Shown: positions 1,729 to 38,764 of the stretch, one piece after another
How the letters are laid out: the number at the start of each line of letters is the position of its first letter
Numbering within the stretch: position 1 is the first letter of the stretch
NCBI GenBank assembly: GCA_938034705.1
Contig: CALHMG010000168.1
Span: forward strand, 1-38,764
Source: an uncultured Gammaproteobacteria bacterium
GTDB taxonomy: Bacteria > Pseudomonadota > Gammaproteobacteria > Arenicellales > CALHMG01
Length of the DNA stretch: 38,764 bases
Direction of reading: 5' to 3'
Made by a program: the position numbers and the translations under genes
The notes under the pieces: model-generated
Told to the model about the DNA's origin: nothing
The model's input: the letters and a program-made list of their open reading frames with translations, nothing else
Databases searched by the model: none

Positions 1729-3183
1729 ATGCAAACCAGCCTGCCAGACAGTGGCTATGCCTTGATCGTCAAACGTGACTGCCCGACATGCGAATTAATC
1801 GTGCCCGTCGCCGCAGAGCTCGTGACGTCAGGGTTGCCGCTTCACGTTTACAGTCAGGACGATCCCGGTTTTCCGGAAAGCGTCAGTGACGTCGTGGATG
1901 ACCGCGAACTCTTCGCGTCCTGGAAGTTCCAGGTCGAAACGGTCCCGTCTCTGATCCGGATCGAAAACGGTGCTGAATCGGCGCGCGCTGAAGGATGGCA
2001 TCGCGGTGAGTGGCGCGCGCTCACGGGTGTCGAGTCTATCGGTACCGACCTTCCCGAGCAGCAGCCCGGTTGTGGATCGATGTCGGTAGACCCGGGCATG
2101 GTCGAAGAGCTTATGGTTCGCTACGGCGACTCAAGCGCCGAGGCACGTCCGGTGACCGTCACCTATCCGATGGATCCGGTTGAGGCCTGTTTTGATCGTG
2201 GCTGGAGTGATGGCCTGCCGGTTGTTCCTCCAACCGAGGTACGACTGCTGCGAATGCTTGAAGGCACGTCGCGCAAACCAAACGAGGTCATCGGTGATAT
2301 TCCACCGAGCATGGCGCCGTGTACGGTTGAGAAGGCCGCGTTGAACGCGGTGATGGCTGGATGCAAACCTGAATACTTTCCGATTGTACTGGCCGCAATC
2401 GAAGCCGTGCTTGAACCCGAATTTTCCATGCACGGAGTTTTGTGTACCACCGACTTCGTCGGACCCTGGGTCATTGTGAACGGGCCCATGGCCAAGCGAG
2501 CGGGGATGAACTCTGGCGTCAATGCGCTGGGACAGGGCAATCGTGCAAACGCGACCATCGGGCGCGCGCTGCAGCTTGTGATTCGCAACGTGGGCGGCGG
2601 TCGGCCGGGTGAAATAGATCGCTCGACGCTTGGACAGCCGGGCAAGTACACGGCCTGTTTTGCGGAGGCGGAAGACGCTGAAAACTGGACGCCGCTGGCG
2701 ACCCGACGCGGTGTTCCGCAAGGCAAGTCTGCGGTTACGGTATTTGCGGGCGCAGGCGTGCAGCCGATCTGGGACGAGCGATCGCGTGTTCCCGAGTCAC
2801 TGGCGATGTCGTTTGCTCAGGCGCTTTGTGCCATCGGGCACCCGAAGCGTTTTGGTTTCCATGACGCGATGCTGGTGATTTCGCCAGACCATCAGAGAAT
2901 ATTTTCTGAACACGGCTGGGATCCCGACAGGATTCGTGAAGCCGTCATCGGTTACACCGCCAGGCCCGCAGCGGAACTGGCACGGGGCGCTGGCGGCAAC
3001 GCGGAAGGTCTGCTGCCTGCCCAGATCGGTGATGCCGAAGTCATTAATAAGTTTTCACCCACCAACCAGTTGCTGATTGTTCGGGCCGGTGGTCCGGCCG
3101 GATTGATATCCGCCATTATCAGCGGCTGGGCTGCATCAGGAGAGCGCGGTAGCTCGCCTGTCACAAAGGAGATCTCAGTTTGA
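1729..3183 (+). CDS. Thioredoxin-like domain fused to a large uncharacterised domain; partner of the UGSC selenoprotein
   Basis: The first about 110 residues are thioredoxin-like: a beta strand (YALIVKRD), a CPTC redox motif (C18-C21), and ETVPSL with the expected cis-Pro (P73). The rest (about 142-484) is a conserved-looking domain I cannot name. It contains GWSDGLPVVPPTE, an IPPSMAPCTVEKAALNAVMAGCKPEY stretch with two cysteines and a Gly/Asn-rich GVNALGQGNRANATIG. No signal peptide or membrane helix is seen, so it is likely cytoplasmic. The ATG at 1729 is preferred because GGAG lies 5 bases upstream; an in-frame ATG at 1690 would add 13 residues but has no clear ribosome site. The stop overlaps the TTG start of the selenoprotein gene, implying coupled translation. 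An inferred role is reduction of, or shared substrate chemistry with, that selenoprotein. Confidence 0.8.
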   Translation: MQTSLPDSGYALIVKRDCPTCELIVPVAAELVTSGLPLHVYSQDDPGFPESVSDVVDDRELFASWKFQVETVPSLIRIENGAESARAEGWHRGEWRALTGVESIGTDLPEQQPGCGSMSVDPGMVEELMVRYGDSSAEARPVTVTYPMDPVEACFDRGWSDGLPVVPPTEVRLLRMLEGTSRKPNEVIGDIPPSMAPCTVEKAALNAVMAGCKPEYFPIVLAAIEAVLEPEFSMHGVLCTTDFVGPWVIVNGPMAKRAGMNSGVNALGQGNRANATIGRALQLVIRNVGGGRPGEIDRSTLGQPGKYTACFAEAEDAENWTPLATRRGVPQGKSAVTVFAGAGVQPIWDERSRVPESLAMSFAQALCAIGHPKRFGFHDAMLVISPDHQRIFSEHGWDPDRIREAVIGYTARPAAELARGAGGNAEGLLPAQIGDAEVINKFSPTNQLLIVRAGGPAGLISAIISGWAASGERGSSPVTKEISV

Positions 3184-3704
3184 AAGCTCAAACAATATTG
3201 CTTGATCCAACGGATGAACGTGGCGCGGATATGCGCCCGCGTCGCGATCCGCTACCGTCTCTTGAGGGCAAGACGGTCGCTTTGCTTGATATAGCCAAGG
3301 CGCGTGGCGATGTTTTTCTTGATCGTCTGGAAGAGCGTCTGAGCGAGCAGGGCGTCGGTGTAAAGCGGTTCATGAAGCCGACCAATACCCGTAACTCACC
3401 TGCCGAGCTCAATCAGGACCTCGCCGCCGGCGCCGACGCCGTTGTCGAAGCGCTGTCTGACTGAGGTTCGTGCACGTCGTGCAGTTTGCATGACATGTTC
3501 GACCTTGATAAGCGAGGCCTGCCCGGTGTGATGATTGCGACAGAAGCATTCAGGGACGCCGCGAAAGCGCAGGTTAAACAGCTCGGTTTTGAACCGGCAA
3601 TAGTCTGGATCCCCCATCCGGTCCAGAACCGAACTGACGATGAACTAAGACAGCTGGTGGACTCGGTCTATGACGACATTGTCGGCGCGATTTCGGTTAA
3701 CTGA
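3180..3704 (+). CDS. UGSC-family selenoprotein (in-frame UGA read as selenocysteine)
   Basis: The frame starts at TTG (3180), overlapping the upstream TGA as TTGA. It runs 94 codons, meets TGA at 3462-3464, then stays open in the same frame to TGA at 3702-3704. Reading the internal TGA as Sec gives a 174-residue protein with EALSD-U-GSCTSCSLHD, that is U95, C98 and C101. This is the signature of the UGSC (seleno)protein family first noted in marine metagenomes. Homology-like sequence continues on both sides of the UGA: TVALLDIAKARGDVFLDRL before it, and LDKRGLPGVMIATEAF and WIPHP after it. A SECIS-like hairpin follows the UGA at the right distance. The protein is small and cytoplasmic, and its reaction is unknown; a thiol/selenol redox or detoxification role is plausible. 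Automatic callers would report two fragments. The Sec machinery genes (selA, selB, selC) are not in this window. Confidence 0.85.
3465..3500 (+). promoter_or_regulatory. Bacterial SECIS element (selenocysteine insertion hairpin)
   Basis: Directly after the UGA, GTCGTGCA (3476-3483) pairs with TGCATGAC (3487-3494) as an 8-bp stem (one G-U) closed by the 3-base loop GTT. A C/A mismatch and three more pairs (3472-3474 with 3496-3498) extend it. The loop begins 20 bases after the UGA and its first base is G. These features match the known bacterial SECIS rules (loop about 16-37 bases from UGA, a G among the first two loop bases) for SelB binding. The element lies inside coding sequence. Confidence 0.7.
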
Positions 3705-3755: not shown

Positions 3756-4760
3756 ATGTCGATGACTTTATCTGATGACAGTGTTGGTTCCGTTGAACAC
3801 ACCGCCTTTGCGGAGGTTCGTCAGCGTTTAATTTCGCGCGTGCTGGGTCAGGAGGTTCTGATCGAGCGGATGCTGGTTGCGCTGCTGGCCGACGGTCACG
3901 TTCTGGTAGAGGGTGCTCCCGGTCTTGCCAAGACGAGCGCAATCAAGTCCCTGGCGCAATGCGTTGACGGTTCGTTTCACCGTATTCAGTTTACGCCTGA
4001 CCTGCTGCCGTCGGATCTGACCGGTACCGACGTCTACAGACCTGCCGACGGCAGTTTTCAGTTTCAGGCAGGACCGTTGTTCAACAATCTGCTGCTGGCG
4101 GACGAGATTAACCGCGCGCCGGCCAAGGTGCAGTCAGCGTTGCTTGAGGCGATGGAAGAGCGCCAGGTTACGGTGGGTAAAACCAGCCGGCCTCTGGCCG
4201 AACCCTTTCTCGTGATGGCGACGCAGAATCCGATTGAGCAGGAGGGCACCTATCCTCTGCCCGAAGCCCAGCTGGACCGGTTTATGATGCATGTGGAGGT
4301 CGGGCACCCTCCAGCTGAAATCGAACACGAGATTCTCAAGCTCAATCGGGCGATCGCTTCGGATACCCTGTTGAACACGTCTTCGACGCCGCCTACCGTT
4401 CTTGATTCTGACACTATTCGAGCTGCACGATCCCAGGTGCTGGACGTCCATATGTCCGAGGCGCTTGAAAAATATCTCGTCAGTTTGATTATCGCGACCC
4501 GTGAGCCGGCGAAGGTCGTACCCGATCTCGACGGCATGCTGCGTCTGGGCGCCAGCCCGCGAGCCACGCTGTCGCTGGATCGAGGTTCACGCGCGCTAGC
4601 CTGGCTTGAGGGACGCAATTTCGTGCAGCCGCCAGACATCCACGCTATTGCTGCCGACGTCCTGCGACATCGCCTGTTGCTGACTTTTGAAGCCCAGGCC
4701 GCAGGCGTGACTACCGGCGATGTGGTCACCGCGATTCTGGAAGCCGTACCGGTTCCCTGA
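3756..4760 (+). CDS. MoxR-family AAA+ ATPase
   Basis: This 334-residue AAA+ protein has Walker A GAPGLAKT (53-60), Walker B LLLADE (112-117) followed by INRAPAKVQSALLEAMEE, sensor-1 ATQNP (155-159) and the MoxR-specific EQEGTYPLPEAQLDRF segment. MoxR ATPases act as chaperone-like assembly factors for partner VWA-domain proteins and cofactor-loaded enzymes. It is the first gene of a five-gene block, 8 bases ahead of the DUF58 gene, which is the classical MoxR/Bat arrangement. A TACACT hexamer at 3744-3749 lies 7 bases ahead of the ATG, so a near-leaderless transcript is possible, but no -35 box is evident. A second in-frame ATG at 3762 is an alternative start. Confidence 0.95.
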   Translation: MSMTLSDDSVGSVEHTAFAEVRQRLISRVLGQEVLIERMLVALLADGHVLVEGAPGLAKTSAIKSLAQCVDGSFHRIQFTPDLLPSDLTGTDVYRPADGSFQFQAGPLFNNLLLADEINRAPAKVQSALLEAMEERQVTVGKTSRPLAEPFLVMATQNPIEQEGTYPLPEAQLDRFMMHVEVGHPPAEIEHEILKLNRAIASDTLLNTSSTPPTVLDSDTIRAARSQVLDVHMSEALEKYLVSLIIATREPAKVVPDLDGMLRLGASPRATLSLDRGSRALAWLEGRNFVQPPDIHAIAADVLRHRLLLTFEAQAAGVTTGDVVTAILEAVPVP

Positions 4761-4768
4761 GGCCTGCG

Positions 4769-5761
4769 ATGGCAGAGAGTGCGCTATCGAAGATCAGGAA
4801 TGCGCAGGTCCGCACCAGCGCTGCGGGAAAGATCGATATCTCTCTGGACGAGCTGGTTGACCTTGCCAGGGATTCCCGGCGTTTGATTACGCACCCTGAA
4901 CGGGTCCGCGCGTCGTTGAGTTTTGGCATTAACGATTCCGCCCGTCACGGTCACGGCATGGAATATGCTGAAAGCCGTCCGTGGGTTGCCGGTGATGACA
5001 TACGCAACATGGACTGGCGCGTTACCGCGAGAACCGGTCGACCTCATACAAAGCTTTTTGAAGAAGAGCGAGATCAGCCCTGGATGATCGTTGTTGATTT
5101 GAGAAGCGCCATGGCGTTTGGGTCAAAGACGCGATTCAAGTCGGTGCAGGCGGCAAGAATTGCAGCGTTGCTCGGCTGGGCCGGCATTTCTCTCGGAAAT
5201 CGTTTGAGTGGTGTTCTGCTGACAGACTCAGGTGTGCAGATGCTGGGCACCGCGCGAGGTCGAGCCGGGGTCATTCAGTTTCTGCAGGCGATGGCATCTA
5301 TCGTTATCAAGCCCGAGCGCCGCGCGTTCGTTGAATCGTTGTCACCCGGTGTCTTCGATCAGGTTGTCGCCAAGGCACCGCCGAGTGCGGCGGTTTTCTT
5401 TATCAGTGACTTTTCGGGTTTTACCGCAACGTCGTATCAGGAACTGTCCCGTCTTGGGAGTACCCGGTCGTTGATAGCCGTACGCATCAGTGATGCGCTG
5501 GAAACCGAGGCACCCCAACACGGTCGTTACCCCGTCACAAATGGCGAGGAGCGTCATATGGTTGGTATTCGGGATGAGGACGACGAGAACAGCTGGGTTC
5601 AGGCGCTGGAAAAAATAACCTCGGAAATTCGCCACAATGTTGTCGCCGCGGGCGCAAGGTTTGCCGTTATCGCAGCGCACGCGGATCCGGTAGCGACGCT
5701 GAAACGAATCCTCAACAATGAAGTTGAGGTGGACGATTCAGGAGCGACTGATGAATCCTGA
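4769..5761 (+). CDS. DUF58 domain-containing protein
   Basis: The 330-residue protein carries the DUF58 core at about 61-102: GHGMEYAESRPWVAGDDIR, MDWRVTARTG and KLFEEERD. It continues into a VWA-like fold (MIVVDLRSAMAFG, about 107-117) in which the metal site is degenerate (D-L-R-S). No transmembrane helix is evident, so this is a soluble or peripheral member. DUF58 proteins are standard partners between MoxR and the VWA proteins in Bat-type operons; their biochemical role is not settled. The last 11 bases overlap the start of the next gene, indicating co-translation. Confidence 0.93.
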   Translation: MAESALSKIRNAQVRTSAAGKIDISLDELVDLARDSRRLITHPERVRASLSFGINDSARHGHGMEYAESRPWVAGDDIRNMDWRVTARTGRPHTKLFEEERDQPWMIVVDLRSAMAFGSKTRFKSVQAARIAALLGWAGISLGNRLSGVLLTDSGVQMLGTARGRAGVIQFLQAMASIVIKPERRAFVESLSPGVFDQVVAKAPPSAAVFFISDFSGFTATSYQELSRLGSTRSLIAVRISDALETEAPQHGRYPVTNGEERHMVGIRDEDDENSWVQALEKITSEIRHNVVAAGARFAVIAAHADPVATLKRILNNEVEVDDSGATDES

Positions 5762-6215
5762 GGGTCTTGAGCTGTTGCGCGACATTCATGCTCCGGCGGA
5801 TCCGTCGATCTGGCCTCCCGCAATCGGCTGGTGGTTTGTCGTGATAATGGTGGTGCTGTTCCTGATTTATCGCCCGCAACTCACCCGCTATGCCCGCGCC
5901 AGATCGCGACGACGCGAGGCCTTGAGGGATCTTGACGCGTTGCGCAAACGTGCCGGCAGTGATTCAGACGCAGCGGTGGCGGCGGACCTGTCCGAGCTGA
6001 TGCGCCGCGTTGCCTTGCGCAAGTTTCCGGAAGAAAACTGTGCCGGCGTTGCGGGTCAGGCATGGCTTGAGTTTCTGCGTCGTACCGACAAAAGTGATGC
6101 GATGCATTCGCCGCTTGCTCTTCGACTGCTTGATGCGCCCTATCGACGGCGACCCCAGATCGAGACGGCAGAACTGGTAGACCTCGGCGCCAGCTGGATT
6201 GAGCAACATGCGTGA
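5751..6215 (+). CDS. DUF4381 domain-containing membrane protein
   Basis: This 154-residue protein begins MNPEGLELLRDIHAPADPS, then IWPPAIGWWFVVIMVVLFLIY, a single transmembrane helix typical of DUF4381. A basic cytosolic region and a helical segment ending in WLEFLRR and AELVDLGASWIEQHA follow. The ATG at 5751 was chosen over a longer TTG/ATG-type extension because AGGAG sits 7-8 bases upstream and the family starts just before the Pro-rich PPAIGWW segment. It overlaps DUF58 by 11 bases and the next VWA gene by 4. Members are found almost only in MoxR/VWA operons and probably scaffold the membrane complex (inference). Confidence 0.88.
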   Translation: MNPEGLELLRDIHAPADPSIWPPAIGWWFVVIMVVLFLIYRPQLTRYARARSRRREALRDLDALRKRAGSDSDAAVAADLSELMRRVALRKFPEENCAGVAGQAWLEFLRRTDKSDAMHSPLALRLLDAPYRRRPQIETAELVDLGASWIEQHA

Positions 6216-7213
6216 GTTTGCCGTCCATGGTTGAGTTTCAGAATCCCTGGCTTTTTGCCGCGCTGCTGTTACCTGTGCTGGTAGCCATTTTTGTTCCGGC
6301 ATCCAGGGCATCATCGACGTCATTGCGAGTTCCGTTTCATCATGCTGTGTCGGCGCTGCGAACGGCTGGGCCCGCAACGAATCGCGGTTGGCGAACCTGG
6401 CTTGCCGCGCTTGCGTACATCGCGCTGGTAGTAGCGGCGGCGCGGCCGGTTAAAATCAGCGAAGACGTTTCGGTGCCGCTGACGGGACGCGACATCATGA
6501 TCGCAATTGATATTTCGGCCAGCATGGCCGAAATGGACTGGCGATCTGAAGTTACACGCGTCACCAGAATGAGTGTGGTGAAAAAGATCATTGGCGACTT
6601 CATTGCGCGCCGGCAGGGTGACCGGGTTGGCGTCGTCGTTTTCGGCTCAAACGCTTACCTGCAGACACCGCTGACCTTCGATCTGAAAAGTGCGGTCGAC
6701 ATGCTCAACGACACCGTTGTGGGTCTCGCCGGCCCGGCCACGGCAATGGGTGATGCGATCGGGCTGACGATAAAGCGTTTGCGAGAAGCCGAAGCCAATC
6801 ACCGGGTCGTCATTCTTGTCTCGGATGGCGCCGCCAATGCGGGCTGGACTAAACCTGATGATGCGATTCGGGTCGCGGCGACCGAAGGATTGAGAATTTA
6901 CACAATCGGGGTAGGGTCTAAGTCCGTCGAGAAAAAGTCGGGTGGACCTTCGACCGCGCTGGACGAACCCACACTGAAAAAACTCGCTTCAAAGACGGGT
7001 GGAAAGTATTTTCTCGCCAAAGGTGGCAACGAGCTGGAGGAAGTTTACACCGAGCTGGACAAGCTTGAGCCTGCGGTCGTCGATGATGAAATCGCACGCA
7101 CGACGACCGAGCTCTACCCCTGGCCGCTTGGGTTCGCGCTGGCGATTGCGGTGTTGTTGATCATGACGGGTATTCGATCCAAAGGTTATGAAGCGCGGGC
7201 GGTGTCAGAGTGA
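6212..7213 (+). CDS. VWA-domain membrane protein (BatA-like)
   Basis: The 333-residue protein has an N-terminal hairpin of two membrane helices (about 10-30 and 62-78), a cytoplasmic or periplasmic VWA domain with an intact MIDAS motif DISAS (D100-S104), RQGDRVGVVVFGSNAYLQTPLT, and VILVSDGAANAGW. A C-terminal membrane helix (YPWPLGFALAIAVLLIMTG, about 304-322) follows. This is the BatA architecture from Bacteroides aerotolerance-type operons. The GTG start forms a GTGA overlap with the upstream stop; the in-frame ATG at 6227 gives a protein whose N-terminus (MVEFQNPWLFAALLLP) looks like a more usual BatA start. The intact MIDAS suggests metal-dependent protein binding, probably regulated by the adjacent MoxR. 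Confidence 0.92.
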   Translation: MSLPSMVEFQNPWLFAALLLPVLVAIFVPASRASSTSLRVPFHHAVSALRTAGPATNRGWRTWLAALAYIALVVAAARPVKISEDVSVPLTGRDIMIAIDISASMAEMDWRSEVTRVTRMSVVKKIIGDFIARRQGDRVGVVVFGSNAYLQTPLTFDLKSAVDMLNDTVVGLAGPATAMGDAIGLTIKRLREAEANHRVVILVSDGAANAGWTKPDDAIRVAATEGLRIYTIGVGSKSVEKKSGGPSTALDEPTLKKLASKTGGKYFLAKGGNELEEVYTELDKLEPAVVDDEIARTTTELYPWPLGFALAIAVLLIMTGIRSKGYEARAVSE

Positions 7214-8946
7214 TCGAGGAGTTCCATTTTTTAAGACCCCTCTGGTTGCTGGCTCTGCCCGTGATCCTTGTACTGGTTTTCTACCTGCACCGCGTTCAGG
7301 GGAGGGGTTCGGACTGGAGTCAGGTTATTGAGCCTGAGCTGCTCGAGGCCTTGACCTATACGAACAGCTCGTCAAGGCGCTGGTGGATAGATCTGCTCAT
7401 CGCGGCGATGGTTTTCGCGGTCATTGCTCTCGCAGGTCCCAGCCTCAAGAAAGACACGCGGCCCGTGTTCAGGAAAGCGGATGCCCGAATTATTCTGTTT
7501 GATATTTCCAGATCGATGAACGCCGCTGATATTGCGCCAACGCGTCTCGTGCGAGCGCGTTCGGCGGTTGCCAGAATTCTGGAGGAGTCACAGGGTCATC
7601 GTACCGGGCTGATCGCCTACGCTGGCGACGCGTGGCTCATGGCGCCGTTGACGCGTGACGGACGTACGTTGAAGACGATGCTGAACGTGCTCGAAACCAA
7701 CGTTGCGCCAGTCCAGGGGAGTCGTCCGGACAGGGCGTTGCTGCTGGCTGAAAAGATCATCACGCGTTCGAGCGCCAAGAATGTCGAAATCATTGTGTTG
7801 ACAGACGGGTTCAAGGGATCACGTCCGGCCGAGCTGGCAACGTCGTTACGCGCACGAGGGCACCGGATCTCGGTTTTGGCGGCGGGCACGACGCAGGGTG
7901 CAACGATTCCGGCGTCCGGAGGCAAGGTCGTCCGCGACTTCAACAAGGAGGTTGTCGTTGCCCGTACCGACATGACACTGCTGGGAGAGCTTGCGGCGGC
8001 TGGTGGCGGAACCCTGCGAAGTCTTGAGGAGCCGATTGATTCGTTAACGTCCTGGCTTGAGTCGATGAAGCTTGCGGTGCAGGCCGACGACGACATCAAC
8101 GCTGCCGAAAGAGACGAGGTCATTACCTGGCGCGATGACGGACCCTGGCTGATCTTGCCGCTGCTTTTGCTTGCGTCCCTGGCTTTCAGGCGCGGCTGGC
8201 TAATGCTGCTGCCTCTGGTGATGGTTTGCAACTTTCTGTTGCCCGCACCCGTTGCGTACGCAGGCTTTCTCGATCTGTTTATTCGCAAGGACCAGAGGAC
8301 GGCAGCTGCGATTGAGCGGGGAGACTTTGAATCCGCTCTCGAAAGCGCACCCGATTCTGCATGGTCCGGAACCGTGAGCTACAGACGCGGAGACTTTGCC
8401 AGCGCCGCGTTGTTTTACTCTGACGATAACTCCGCCGACGGTCACTACAATCGTGGCAATGCGCTGGCGATGTTGGGCAAATACGAAGAGGCGCTCGATG
8501 CCTATAAGGCCGCGCTGGATCGCTACCCTGATCACGAGGACGCTACCTTCAATTTTGGGATCGTGCGCAAATTGCTGGAAGAGCAAGAACAGGAGCGCAA
8601 CAAAAACAACGCCGAAGTCATGTTCGATGACGCGGACGGATCCGGCTCAGAGGCAGAGGGCGTCAGCCCGGGCGCCACGGTAGAAAACGAGTCCGAGCCG
8701 GATGAGAGCGAGTCTGATGTATTGCCCGGCGATGCCAGGGTTGAGGCACTGGGCGACAACGAGATATCCGAAGAAGGCACGCCGGTGGCCCCGCAGTACA
8801 CCGAGGAAGAACTGCTGTCGCCTCAGGAAGTGATCATCTGGCTTGATCGTGTACCCGATGACCCGTCGGGTCTGATTCGTCGCAAGTTTGCGATCGAACA
8901 AAGTCAACGCCGCCGCCAGACATCGGATCGCGGTCAGTCCTGGTAG
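7210..8946 (+). CDS. VWA-TPR membrane protein (BatB/BatC fusion type)
   Basis: The 578-residue protein begins with two membrane helices (about 9-27 and 58-76), followed by a VWA domain with MIDAS DISRS (D98-S102). A third hydrophobic region (about 311-350) comes before a TPR segment (HYNRGNALAMLGKYEEALDA) and a Glu/Asp/Ser-rich tail of about 80 residues ending in a basic QSQRRRQ stretch. In many genomes the VWA part (BatB) and the TPR part (BatC) are separate genes. The GTG start overlaps the preceding stop as GTGA. The last 13 bases overlap the convergent mnmC gene. A BatD-type gene, usual at the end of such operons, is absent here. Confidence 0.92.
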   Translation: MIEEFHFLRPLWLLALPVILVLVFYLHRVQGRGSDWSQVIEPELLEALTYTNSSSRRWWIDLLIAAMVFAVIALAGPSLKKDTRPVFRKADARIILFDISRSMNAADIAPTRLVRARSAVARILEESQGHRTGLIAYAGDAWLMAPLTRDGRTLKTMLNVLETNVAPVQGSRPDRALLLAEKIITRSSAKNVEIIVLTDGFKGSRPAELATSLRARGHRISVLAAGTTQGATIPASGGKVVRDFNKEVVVARTDMTLLGELAAAGGGTLRSLEEPIDSLTSWLESMKLAVQADDDINAAERDEVITWRDDGPWLILPLLLLASLAFRRGWLMLLPLVMVCNFLLPAPVAYAGFLDLFIRKDQRTAAAIERGDFESALESAPDSAWSGTVSYRRGDFASAALFYSDDNSADGHYNRGNALAMLGKYEEALDAYKAALDRYPDHEDATFNFGIVRKLLEEQEQERNKNNAEVMFDDADGSGSEAEGVSPGATVENESEPDESESDVLPGDARVEALGDNEISEEGTPVAPQYTEEELLSPQEVIIWLDRVPDDPSGLIRRKFAIEQSQRRRQTSDRGQSW

Positions 8947-18615: not shown

Positions 18616-19380
18616 TCAACCGCTGGCGAGCAGCTGGTCGATAAACGCATTGGCTTCGGCGATCGACGATTCCATCTCTTTGATCAGTGAATCCACGTTG
18701 CTCTCAATATTCGCCGTTTCTTCGTCGAGCGAGGCGATCGCCTGCATGTTCAGATTGTGCTTTATGTACAGCACCTGATCGCGAAAGGCTGACAGAACCG
18801 GCTCCGTGCGTTTTTGCGCGTTACGCATCGCAGCTATGAGCTGATCGGCACGCCTGCGAGTGTCGTCAAACTGCTTTTCGGCCCGGGCGCGCAAGCTGGC
18901 GTCGTGATAGTCATTGAGTTCATCTTTCCACTCAGACAGCAGCTTGTTTGCTGCGCTGACAACTTTATCAACGCGATTCTCAATATTCTTCGCGGCGGCT
19001 TCGCTGCCCTCGAATGCTGAATTGAGTTTGTTGTATTTCTTTTCCAGATCGCCGCCATCAAAGTTGGTGACGGCTTTGAACTGCTCCAGCGCCGTCTTGA
19101 ATTCCTCAACGGTCTCGGTCTGGGCATCGCGGGCGTCCTCGACGCGATCAACCAGAATGTCCCTCGGTTCTTTCCAGAGCGAAGAGATGCTGAGATCGGG
19201 CATGCCGATATTGAGACCGCCGGTGCTGTTTGCGCCACCGCCAAATCCTGGAATCATATTGCCCAGCGCACCGAGATTGCCGCCGGACAGGAGGTAACCG
19301 CCACCGGCCAATGCGATGAGTAGCCACGATCGCTTTTTGCGAAGCAGCAGTGGAGCGATAGCAAGTAGGGCCCGTAACAC
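18616..19380 (-). CDS. DUF2959 family protein, membrane-anchored form
   Basis: The GTG at 19380 is preceded by AGAGG 8 bases upstream, so the protein is 254 residues; a longer open frame to 19506 has no support. The N-terminus is hydrophobic and basic (VLRALLAIAPLLLRKKRSW then LLIALAGGGYLL), suggesting a membrane anchor, followed by a Gly-rich linker. The DUF2959 domain then starts at RDILVDRVEDARDAQ. The rest is long amphipathic helix, with a strongly conserved end, VLYIKHNLNMQAIASLDEE and AEANAFIDQLL. No function is established. A paralogue lies divergently on the other strand. Confidence 0.87.
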   Translation of the reverse strand: MLRALLAIAPLLLRKKRSWLLIALAGGGYLLSGGNLGALGNMIPGFGGGANSTGGLNIGMPDLSISSLWKEPRDILVDRVEDARDAQTETVEEFKTALEQFKAVTNFDGGDLEKKYNKLNSAFEGSEAAAKNIENRVDKVVSAANKLLSEWKDELNDYHDASLRARAEKQFDDTRRRADQLIAAMRNAQKRTEPVLSAFRDQVLYIKHNLNMQAIASLDEETANIESNVDSLIKEMESSIAEANAFIDQLLASG

Positions 19381-19627
19381 AGCGAATTCCTCTATATGTC
19401 CAAGTGCAGACGTGATCGAGCAAGCGATCGTTAAATTGGCGAAAGGCCCGACAGTCTGAACTGCGGCCGCAGGCGCGTCTGCATTATAATCCCTCGGCGG
19501 GGGCACGTGGAGTTACGCTTTGCGTCTTTGTTCGGCCCGCCAGACAACAACGACGGTATAGTGCGACAGAACCCAGCACGAGTGTCTTTTTGGACACACT
19601 CGAAGATCAAAGGCCCTGGAATTGAAG
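19381..19627. other. Divergent regulatory region between DUF2959 paralogues
   Basis: This 247-base non-coding interval must contain the promoters of both DUF2959 genes. An ATTATAAT palindrome (19483-19490) supplies a perfect TATAAT hexamer on both strands, but neither side has a recognisable -35 at 16-18 bases. TATAGT at 19557-19562 is another -10 candidate for the plus-strand gene. Nothing else coding was seen. Confidence 0.4.
19579..19602 (+). promoter_or_regulatory. Hairpin in the leader of the DUF2959 lipoprotein gene
   Basis: CGAGTGT (19579-19585) pairs with ACACTCG (19596-19602) around a T-rich 10-base loop, 25 bases before the ATG at 19628. It has no following T-run, so it is a leader structure rather than a terminator. 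Its role is unknown. Confidence 0.35.
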
Positions 19628-20350
19628 ATGAATAAGATTTTGACATGTCATGTCGGTTTCGCCGGTTACACGAATTTCCGCGGCAGGGGTCGTTGCGGAC
19701 TTCGCCGGGTGATTCTGATGCTGGCGGTGTTGTTCGCGGGTCCAGCTCTCACGGGTTGCGCGACGGTGCAGTACGCGGCGTATGAAAAAGTTGGCGTGCA
19801 CAAGAGAGACCTCCTTGTCGATCGTGTTGAAGACGCTCGCGATGCGCAGGACGAGGCTAAAGAAGAATTCGTCAGTGCGTACGAAAGATTTGTCGCTCTC
19901 GTCGGTGCTCCACAGGGAGACTTGCCAAAAACATACAAAAAGCTCAGCAGCGATCTTGAGCGTGCTGAGGGCTCGGCGACGGAGATCGACGAGCGAATTA
20001 AAGCTGTCGATCGAGTTGCCAACGATCTGTTTCGAGAGTGGCAACAGGAGCTGCTGCAGTACACGAACCCGCAGTATCGCGCGTCAAGCGAACGCAAGCT
20101 CGGCATCACCCGGCAGCGCTATAGCCGACTGAAGTCCAGCATGGATCAGGCTCGCTCAAAGATTGATCCGGTGCTGCGTGTTCTTCAGGACCACGTGCTG
20201 TTCCTGAAGCACAACCTCAACGCGCAGGCGCTTTCCAGTCTCCAGGGCGAAGTCGTTGCAATCGAAGGACGGGTTGGCGAACTGGTGCGGCAAATGGAAG
20301 CGGCGATCTCCGAAGCGAACAGTTTTATCAGCGAAGTAGGTGGTGCCTGA
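19628..20350 (+). CDS. DUF2959 family lipoprotein
   Basis: The 240-residue protein has an N-terminal export signal ending in AVLFAGPALTGC, a good lipobox with Cys44 as the acylated residue. The segment before the hydrophobic core is unusually long and Arg-rich, so the true start could be further in, for example at the GTG encoding the first residue of VILMLAVLF. The mature part starts VQYAAYEKVGVHKRDLLVDRVEDARDAQ and continues as a helical DUF2959 domain to FLKHNLNAQALSSLQGEV and EANSFISEV. It shares RDxLVDRVEDARDAQ and KHNLNxQAxxSL with the divergent paralogue. Its role is unknown; envelope localisation is inferred from the lipobox. Confidence 0.88.
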   Translation: MNKILTCHVGFAGYTNFRGRGRCGLRRVILMLAVLFAGPALTGCATVQYAAYEKVGVHKRDLLVDRVEDARDAQDEAKEEFVSAYERFVALVGAPQGDLPKTYKKLSSDLERAEGSATEIDERIKAVDRVANDLFREWQQELLQYTNPQYRASSERKLGITRQRYSRLKSSMDQARSKIDPVLRVLQDHVLFLKHNLNAQALSSLQGEVVAIEGRVGELVRQMEAAISEANSFISEVGGA

Positions 20351-38117: not shown

Positions 38118-38307
38118 TGCTGATGCGCGCCGTTGGCTTCCATGCCTGAAACGAGCGAAATGTTCTGCAAACCGAACTGCTCGCCTTCGCTGATGTCCTA
38201 TAGTGACAGTGTTGGGGCCGATCAACCAGATGCCCCGGCCGGATGACGTACCCGGACCGCGTTTGAATAACGCGTTATATTATCGGTTCCCAGACTTGGA
38301 AATTTGC

Positions 38308-38764
38308 ATGAAGACGCTTAGTCACACGGCGAAAGCCATCAAGAAAACCCTGATCGGAGCGCTCGCCGCCTGTTTCCTTGTTGCTGGCGCGACTGCCGTT
38401 GCCGAGGAAACGGTGACGCTGAAAAAATCCGAGCTTGAGGCTTTGATTTCAGAAATTGTAAATACACGCCTGAAAGAGTTGAACCTCGACAGCCTGGACG
38501 GATTCAACGGTCGCGTTGCCGACGGCATCAAGGCCTACGTGGCCGATCAGCAGGAGCAGGCCAATGCGAAACAACACGCCAAGGCCAAATACGCGCGCAA
38601 AGTCTCTGCCTCAGACCATATCTACGGTGATCCCGATGCGCCCTACACCTTGATCGAGTATTCAGATTACGAATGTCCGTTCTGCAAGCGTTTTCACGCC
38701 ACACCCCGAGCCGTTGTCGACAAGTATCCGGGCAAGGTCAACTGGGTCTACCGACACTTTCCTT
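38308..38764 (+). CDS. DsbA/DsbG-family thiol oxidoreductase, 3' partial
   Basis: The gene runs off the window end, and 152 codons are visible. The N-terminus is a signal peptide (KKTLIGALAACFLVAGATAVA, cleaved near residue 32), then a coiled helical segment (about 35-95, LKKSELEALISEIVNTRLKE), then the thioredoxin fold with DHIYGDPDAPYTLIEYSDYE and the active-site CPFC (123-126). The fold and motif place it with exported disulfide oxidoreductases of the DsbA_2/thioredoxin_4 type. Its preceding helical segment is unlike plain DsbA. It probably folds or oxidises envelope proteins. The ATG at 38308 has no strong ribosome site. Confidence 0.88.
   Translation, partial: MKTLSHTAKAIKKTLIGALAACFLVAGATAVAEETVTLKKSELEALISEIVNTRLKELNLDSLDGFNGRVADGIKAYVADQQEQANAKQHAKAKYARKVSASDHIYGDPDAPYTLIEYSDYECPFCKRFHATPRAVVDKYPGKVNWVYRHFP

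What the first reader, a model, noticed from the sequence alone, without database searches (positions are those of the whole stretch)
3180..3704. Unannotatable-by-default UGSC selenoprotein
One frame runs 94 codons to UGA, then stays open in the same frame to 3704, with the exact UGSC motif U-G-S-C-T-S-C at the junction and a convincing SECIS hairpin after the UGA. Standard callers will give two fragments. UGSC proteins are a known but functionally undescribed selenoprotein family; its pairing here with a thioredoxin-fusion gene gives a handle on its chemistry.
Basis: partly seen in the sequence, partly recalled or inferred. Interest (0 to 1): 0.85.

Follow-up and report, generated by a model that had tools for sequence, protein, structure and literature searches.

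The report
Selenium enzyme subunit with constant partner
This bacterial gene has an internal TGA codon that is predicted to be read as selenocysteine, it belongs to a known selenium-protein family without a known function, and the gene just before it occurs with its relatives so regularly that the two likely form one enzyme, which would use selenium to cut a carbon–heteroatom bond reductively.

Summary
Window 3180-3704 (+) is one UGSC-family reading frame with an in-frame TGA at codon 95 (Pfam PF24696 E 9e-37; NCBIfam NF041046 above its cut-off). Of 80 named relatives, 59 have TGA there, 21 Cys codons, none anything else. All 59 keep GU in the loop of the hairpin behind the TGA; none of the 21 does. 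The same assembly holds selA, selB, selD and tRNA-Sec, and two more TGA-bearing UGSC paralogues.

New here: UGSC comes as a two-gene module. A large partner without a Pfam family (here 1729-3183, with an N-terminal thioredoxin domain) lies upstream in 78 of 80 loci (the other two begin at contig ends). Of 398 genomes of the phylum, the same 5 have both genes, 393 neither. UGSC is predicted Rossmann-like, and shows weak but specific similarity to the selenocysteine region of glycine/proline reductase subunits (GrdB/PrdB), though Pfam's GrdB model misses it. Most likely it is the selenol subunit of a thioredoxin-fed enzyme that cleaves C-N, C-S, C-O or C-halogen bonds reductively. The recoding is near certain, the two-subunit enzyme likely, the GrdB-like chemistry about even odds, the substrate unknown. 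The family is known; its function has been open since 2008.

The parts
1729..3183 (+). Upstream partner gene, 484 aa (ATG 1729; an in-frame ATG at 1690 would give 497 aa): thioredoxin domain fused to a large conserved domain without a Pfam family; proposed large subunit
   Evidence: No Pfam match at E 0.1 or NCBIfam match at E 1 for this protein; partner profile in the same 5 of 398 genomes as UGSC; upstream of UGSC on the same strand in 78 of 80 loci
1729..2031 (+). Thioredoxin domain of the partner (residues 1-101) with CPTC motif
2146..3180 (+). Conserved partner domain (about residues 140-484), the part present in each copy seen
   Evidence: Invariant D161-G162, P164, G211, N287, D297, E313 and others in 38 rows; thioredoxin-less copies match from about here on
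3165..3171 (+). AAAGGAG, likely ribosome-binding site of the UGSC gene
   Evidence: sequence, 8 nt before TTG 3180
3180..3704 (+). UGSC-family (seleno)protein gene, 174 aa with Sec at 95; TTG start overlaps the partner's stop by 4 nt
   Evidence: PF24696 E 8.9e-37, NF041046 136.3 bits over cut-off 125; a 4-nt overlap in 44 of 85 loci, window included
3462..3464 (+). In-frame TGA, predicted Sec95 of the U-G-S-C motif
   Evidence: 59 TGA, 21 TGC/TGT, 0 other in 80 relatives
3463..3506 (+). Predicted bacterial SECIS hairpin; conserved apical stem 3477-3493 with loop G3484-U3485
   Evidence: z -3.4; 64 TGA against 21 Cys loci, Mann-Whitney p 4.5e-4; GU in the loop in 59 of 59 TGA loci, 0 of 21 Cys loci
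3702..3704 (+). True stop (TGA) of the UGSC gene
   Evidence: relatives end near the same place

Best explanation
Window 3180-3704 encodes a UGSC-family protein whose in-frame TGA is predicted to be read as selenocysteine, and it likely forms, with the protein of the gene directly upstream, a two-subunit reductase that would use the selenol to cleave a carbon-heteroatom bond. Shown by the calls: family membership, TGA/Cys alternation, hairpin, Sec genes in the genome, and the regular pairing of the two genes. Inferred: (1) the large partner domain binds and positions the substrate R-X; (2) the Sec95 selenolate attacks the carbon and expels X (amine, thiol, halide or the like), giving R-Se; (3) Cys98 of UxxC attacks the selenium, releases R-H and leaves a Se-S bond; (4) the thioredoxin domain fused to the partner reduces that bond and is itself recharged by thioredoxin reductase and NADPH. 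Net: R-X + NADPH + H+ gives R-H + HX + NADP+. This is proline-reductase-like chemistry, without evidence here of the clostridial partners (GrdA, GrdE). Different paralogues would serve different substrates.
For: Recoding. selA above cut-off in 23 of 28 genomes with the TGA form but 5 of 21 with the Cys form, Fisher p 9e-5. Module: UGSC (E 1e-3) and partner (E 1e-20) in the same 5 of 398 genomes, next to each other each time; partner upstream on the same strand in 78 of 80 named loci, the other two begin at contig ends; where the distance could be read it is at most 152 nt in 79 of 81 loci, with a 4-nt overlap in 44. GrdB link: of 48 UGSC members, 43 hit TIGR01917 (GrdB) at E 1 or better, best 1.3e-5; 42 hit GrdF, 36 TIGR01918, 33 GrdH; for the window protein the match aligns its Sec region (76-151) with GrdB 327-398. 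Profile against nine PrdB-like proteins P 1.3e-4 or 1.3e-3 by direction (probability 54 or 18%), motif on motif; 16 other families reach at most 1.1%. Electron path: a CxTC motif at the expected distance in 73 of 85 loci; a thioredoxin-disulfide reductase gene within 5 kb in 4 of 80 loci, the two checked being above the TIGR01292 cut-off. Precedent: GrdB-like genes tied to reductive C-F cleavage of fluoroacetate in Cloacibacillus (PMC10838667, abstract and results read).
Against: The GrdB link is weak: Pfam's own GRDB model PF07355 matches 0 of 48 UGSC members at E 1, NCBIfam scores are far under the family cut-offs (18.5 against 602 bits), and the profile comparison rests on nine PrdB-like sequences. 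The partner shows no similarity to GrdE/PrdA (PF09338 not among the Pfam hits of 38 partners at E 0.1), so the substrate-binding half would have to be a different protein. No complex was modelled. Thioredoxin is missing from some modules (C103, L033, L034, L036). In two divergent loci (L034, L036) the order is reversed, UGSC first, and in L054 and L055 the genes lie 1255 and 730 nt apart. Thioredoxin reductase is near only 4 of 80 modules, all of the Cys form. Neighbouring genes differ so much that no single substrate is indicated.
Confidence: 0.5

Rival explanations
1. [quoted passage not shown] the partner is an adaptor and electron donor.
For: UxxC motif; thioredoxin domain in most partners; PMC2398784 passage.
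Against: The UGSC model (pLDDT 92.4) has the order b-a-b-a-b-a-b-a-b-a, Rossmann-like; the best VIA-align matches are Rossmann/receiver-like chains and no thioredoxin is among the 50 rows shown, which does not exclude one; profile against the thioredoxin domain P 0.056, 1% probability. A general defence protein would hardly need a 340-residue partner in each genome checked, nor three diverged copies.
Confidence: 0.25
2. Sec accepts an alkyl or methyl group from the substrate (betaine, sulfonium or similar) and passes it on, i.e. a transferase; thioredoxin only keeps the selenol reduced.
For: One paralogue (C128) lies divergent to a BCCT betaine/carnitine/choline-type transporter; a carboxymethyl-selenoether passed from protein B to other subunits is what PMC10838667 predicts for the fluoroacetate system.
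Against: No transferase or acceptor gene was seen to recur beside the module among the gene clusters looked at.
Confidence: 0.13
3. U-G-S-C-T-S-C binds a metal or cluster and serves a maturation or metal-handling step.
Confidence: 0.08
4. The TGA is a real stop: a 94-residue fragment and a decayed remainder.
For: Standard callers would give that.
Against: 59 TGA and 21 Cys codons in 80 relatives; purifying selection after the TGA; hairpin and Sec genes.
Confidence: 0.02

Closest known systems
UGSC-containing selenoprotein family (Pfam PF24696; NCBIfam NF041046; ocean sampling paper of 2008, PMC2398784)
   Same: Profile match over the whole length, U-G-S-C motif, UGA recoding context.
   Different: A new member. 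Not in the passages I read: the constant neighbouring partner, three paralogous modules in one genome, the GrdB/PrdB link. The 2008 paper reports a UGSC fusion to a domain 'Unknown_1' (figure not held), which may or may not be this partner.
Glycine/sarcosine/betaine reductase selenoprotein B (GrdB, GrdF, GrdH; PF07355, TIGR01917) and D-proline reductase PrdB
   Same: Sec followed by xxC; alignable Sec region; works with a further substrate-binding subunit and thioredoxin-type reduction (recalled biochemistry; partly in PMC13188914).
   Different: Far below family cut-offs and no PF07355 hit; shorter than GrdB; the partner is not GrdE/PrdA-like; no GrdA found in the genome (a search in which no control rang).
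farEB fluoroacetate reductase of Cloacibacillus porcorum (PMC10838667)
   Same: Two-gene selenoprotein module thought to attack a C-X bond with selenolate.
   Different: True GrdB/GrdE homologues in an anaerobe, thought to feed GrdA and GrdC; here a thioredoxin is fused to the partner.

Membership tests
UGSC family (PF24696 / NF041046) | Whole-length profile match above curated cut-offs | tested here: met
   127.3 bits against 25; 136.3 against 125
UGSC family (PF24696 / NF041046) | U-G-S-C (or C-G-S-C) active-site motif | tested here: met
   UGSCTSC at residues 95-101; D94, C/U95, G96, S97, C98 invariant in 48 rows
UGSC family (PF24696 / NF041046) | Sec encoded by TGA with a SECIS element and a Sec-decoding genome | tested here: met
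   By sequence only:
UGSC family (PF24696 / NF041046) | Sec actually inserted in the protein | not testable with these tools
   Needs 75Se labelling or mass spectrometry
GrdB/PrdB family (PF07355, TIGR01917) | Match above the family's curated cut-off | tested here: not met
   18.5 bits against 602.2 for TIGR01917; 0 of 48 members hit PF07355 at E 1
GrdB/PrdB family (PF07355, TIGR01917) | Homologous Sec-bearing region with UxxC | tested here: inconclusive
   43 of 48 members hit TIGR01917 at E 1 or better, best E 1.3e-5; hhalign P 1.3e-4 or 1.3e-3, 16 control families at most 1.1% probability
GrdB/PrdB family (PF07355, TIGR01917) | Paired with a GrdE/PrdA-type subunit (PF09338) | tested here: not met
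   The adjacent gene is another protein; PF09338 not among the Pfam hits of 38 partners at E 0.1; no PF09338 in 398 genomes, but no control rang either
Thioredoxin-fold proteins (for UGSC itself) | Thioredoxin topology | tested here: inconclusive
   Model has alternating b-a units; thioredoxins not among the 50 VIA-align rows shown; hhalign P 0.056
Thioredoxin fold (for the partner's N-terminus) | Thioredoxin topology and CxxC | tested here: met

The most novel reading that the evidence does not exclude
UGSC plus its partner is a new enzyme class: a compact, self-reducing, oxygen-tolerant counterpart of clostridial glycine/betaine/proline reductases, carried as several substrate-specific modules by (presumably aerobic) bacteria, in which the partner domain (in no Pfam family) is the substrate-binding half and a fused thioredoxin delivers NADPH electrons. 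Quaternary amines or sulfonium compounds (betaine, carnitine, DMSP type) are the first substrates to try: one paralogue of this genome stands divergent to a BCCT transporter, and five Bacteroidota modules are preceded by a beta-keto acid cleavage enzyme, with a 3-hydroxyacyl-type dehydrogenase and a permease gene close by on the other strand.
Probability: 0.3. Interest if true: 0.85.

Novelty: new member of a known kind. Interest (0 to 1): 0.55.

Why it matters
UGSC was the fifth most numerous selenoprotein family in the ocean sampling data of 2008 (255 Sec and 21 Cys sequences, Table 2), and a 2026 review still lists it as predicted, with functions of such families largely uncharacterised. 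The regular partner, three paralogues in one genome, and the distant GrdB/PrdB relation turn it from a lone redox motif into a concrete two-protein enzyme to express and assay. If right, reductive C-X cleavage by selenols, known from strict anaerobes, also runs in bacteria such as Methylobacterium and Reyranella (aerobes, recalled) and may matter for turnover of amines, sulfur compounds or halides. It also shows an annotation gap: gene callers cut these proteins at the TGA.

Tried and rejected
Stop at TGA: rejected. Covariation as proof of the hairpin: not obtained; on 36 of the 64 TGA rows pairing was 75.8% against 75.3% in shuffles (92 of 500 as high), because the stem is nearly invariant; on 20 of the 21 Cys rows it was 61.9% against 60.8% (12 of 500 as high), with a covariation score above nearly all shuffles (4 of 500), so some of the pairing follows from the coding sequence itself. 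I rely instead on TGA-against-Cys differences in the apical stem and loop. Several TGA alleles fold poorly (L033 z +0.10; many Reyranella-type loci near -0.4). Rfam on the window: no family.

Natural UGSC-partner fusion to model the interface: none among the best 120 of 7991 hits. Solved structures by sequence: none for UGSC at a meaningful E-value; for the partner none with the single protein and thioredoxins with the profile (best 60 of 63 shown).

Substrate from neighbours: not decided. BKACE, 3HCDH and amino-acid permease in 5 of 80 loci (all Bacteroidota, Cys form; families checked in L097 only); FCD-GntR regulator in 9 of 80 and DctA-type symporter in 3 of 80, all Cys form; a homoserine-acetyltransferase-like gene (name by eye) in 34 of 80, many from Reyranella. 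Many loci are shorter than 14 kb, so these counts are lower bounds (44 of 80 are at least 14 kb). Carnitine-dehydrogenase models match the 3HCDH-type protein only far below their cut-offs, and the BCCT protein is below the cut-offs of the NCBIfam BCCT models though above Pfam's. Outside the 80, L034 holds a 31% match to the thioredoxin reductase query, not followed up.

GrdA in the own genome: no match, but no control rang. Papers: passages of PMC2398784, PMC13188914, PMC9312934, PMC7539508, PMC5029168, PMC1088965, PMC12013277 (no UGSC in it) and PMC10418091; abstract and results of PMC10838667; other listed papers only as search listings. That I know of no description of the module rests in an open-access library only.

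Full report
1. What is there. Window 3180-3704 on the + strand is one reading frame: TTG, 94 codons, TGA at 3462-3464, 79 codons, stop at 3702-3704, with the motif U-G-S-C-T-S-C. Pfam PF24696 'UGSC family' covers it end to end, E 8.9e-37; either half alone also matches. NCBIfam NF041046 'UGSC family (seleno)protein' is above its cut-off. The TTG overlaps the stop of the gene before it by four bases and has AAAGGAG 8 nt upstream.

2. Is the TGA recoded? A scan of species genomes kept the best 80 of 92 relatives. The codon at the motif is TGA in 59, TGC in 17, TGT in 4, never anything else. One of the two search patterns contained the Cys letter, so the ratio is not a frequency. Codons after the TGA are under purifying selection. 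selA is above cut-off in 23 of 28 genomes of TGA alleles and 5 of 21 of Cys alleles (50 of the 80 loci given, one not held; L054 has only a partial selA below the cut-off and counts as no).

3. The hairpin. The 52 bases from 3459 fold at -22 kcal/mol, z -3.4. In 64 TGA loci the mean z of 52 bases from the TGA is -1.87; in 21 Cys loci -0.88 (17 TGC) and -0.43 (4 TGT); p 4.5e-4 (related sequences, so the p is generous). The clearest sign is in single letters: the codon that supplies the loop is AGT (54) or TGT (5) in all 59 TGA loci, and TCN (19) or AGC (2) in all 21 Cys loci. So GU is kept even where the amino acid changes from Ser to Cys. Bacterial SECIS elements have a small apical loop with a conserved G (PMC1088965, passages). 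Counts of paired changes gave no support.

4. Sec machinery. selA and selB lie side by side on contig C112; C73 holds tRNA-Sec and selD as the C-terminal part of a 732-aa frame. The assembly is 85% complete with 2.6% contamination and 380 contigs.

5. Three modules in one genome. The assembly has two more UGSC genes, each with one TGA: C128 (47% identical) and C103 (28%). Each follows a gene related to the window's 1729-3183. On C128 it has the thioredoxin domain, on C103 it lacks it. Surroundings differ: C128 has a BCCT-family transporter divergent from the module and an FAA-hydrolase-type gene; C103 has what look like UbiD/UbiX-type genes (by eye); the window has an SDR gene divergent.

6. 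The partner. It lies upstream on the same strand in 78 of 80 named loci; in the other two (L070, L089) the contig begins within 230 nt of the UGSC match. The distance is at most 152 nt in 79 of the 81 loci where it could be read, 730 and 1255 nt in two. In 398 genomes drawn evenly from the phylum, UGSC is found in 5 at E 1e-3 and the partner profile in the same 5 at E 1e-20, adjacent each time; Fisher p 1e-11. The window's partner has no Pfam or NCBIfam match; the 38 rows give thioredoxin-type hits and single chance hits. The model (pLDDT 92.2) shows thioredoxin at residues 1-101 and a large second domain whose only Foldseek matches are weak. The precise start is open: the predicted protein in the database starts at 1729 (484 aa), the first ATG is 1690.

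8. How it likely works. From the known chemistry of GrdB and PrdB (recalled, and in part in PMC13188914 and PMC10838667): selenolate displaces a leaving group from a carbon next to an activating group, the UxxC thiol frees the product, and a dithiol resets the selenium. Here the dithiol is fused to the partner in most modules; thioredoxin-disulfide reductase genes sit near 4 of 80 modules. The large partner domain would bind the substrate. I found no GrdA in the genome (no control rang), so a one-enzyme reduction as in proline reductase fits better than transfer of the organic group to a second selenoprotein. Steps on substrate, product and complex are inference.

9. Verdict. The family is known, so this is a new member of a known kind. 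The added value is a testable hypothesis for its function: a two-subunit, thioredoxin-fed, selenium-dependent C-X reductase.

Noticed in passing
own genome contig C73 (L025:3765-4889, L135) and C123 (L128): Two GrdB/PrdB-like reading frames (PF07355 hits) continue in frame through a TGA in the motif U-P-N-C-T; one lies on the same contig as selD and tRNA-Sec. Probably two more selenoproteins of this genome.
   Followed up: partly
L034:2619-5133 (G139): A module in which one UGSC gene (with Trp for the third Cys of the motif) is followed by two consecutive partner-domain genes without thioredoxin, suggesting that the large subunit can be a pair.
   Followed up: partly
L036:3678-5250 (G277): The UGSC match is split into two pieces just before a thioredoxin-less partner gene; possible frameshift or assembly error.
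   Followed up: no
third codon position of the SECIS loop in L054, L055, L060, L069, L117: Ser (AGT) is replaced by Cys (TGT), which keeps the loop GU: the RNA letters are more conserved than the amino acid.
   Followed up: yes
window 3756-8946: MoxR ATPase followed by what look like DUF58, membrane and von Willebrand-type (BatA/BatB-like) genes, right behind the UGSC gene (MoxR, the rest by eye); not part of the module.
   Followed up: no
window 18616-19506 (-) and 19622-20350 (+): Two divergent neighbouring genes encode proteins that look similar to each other (by eye).
   Followed up: no
window 38203-38763 (+): A DsbA-like thiol-disulfide protein (by eye, YECPFCKRFH) runs off the end of the window.
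   Followed up: no
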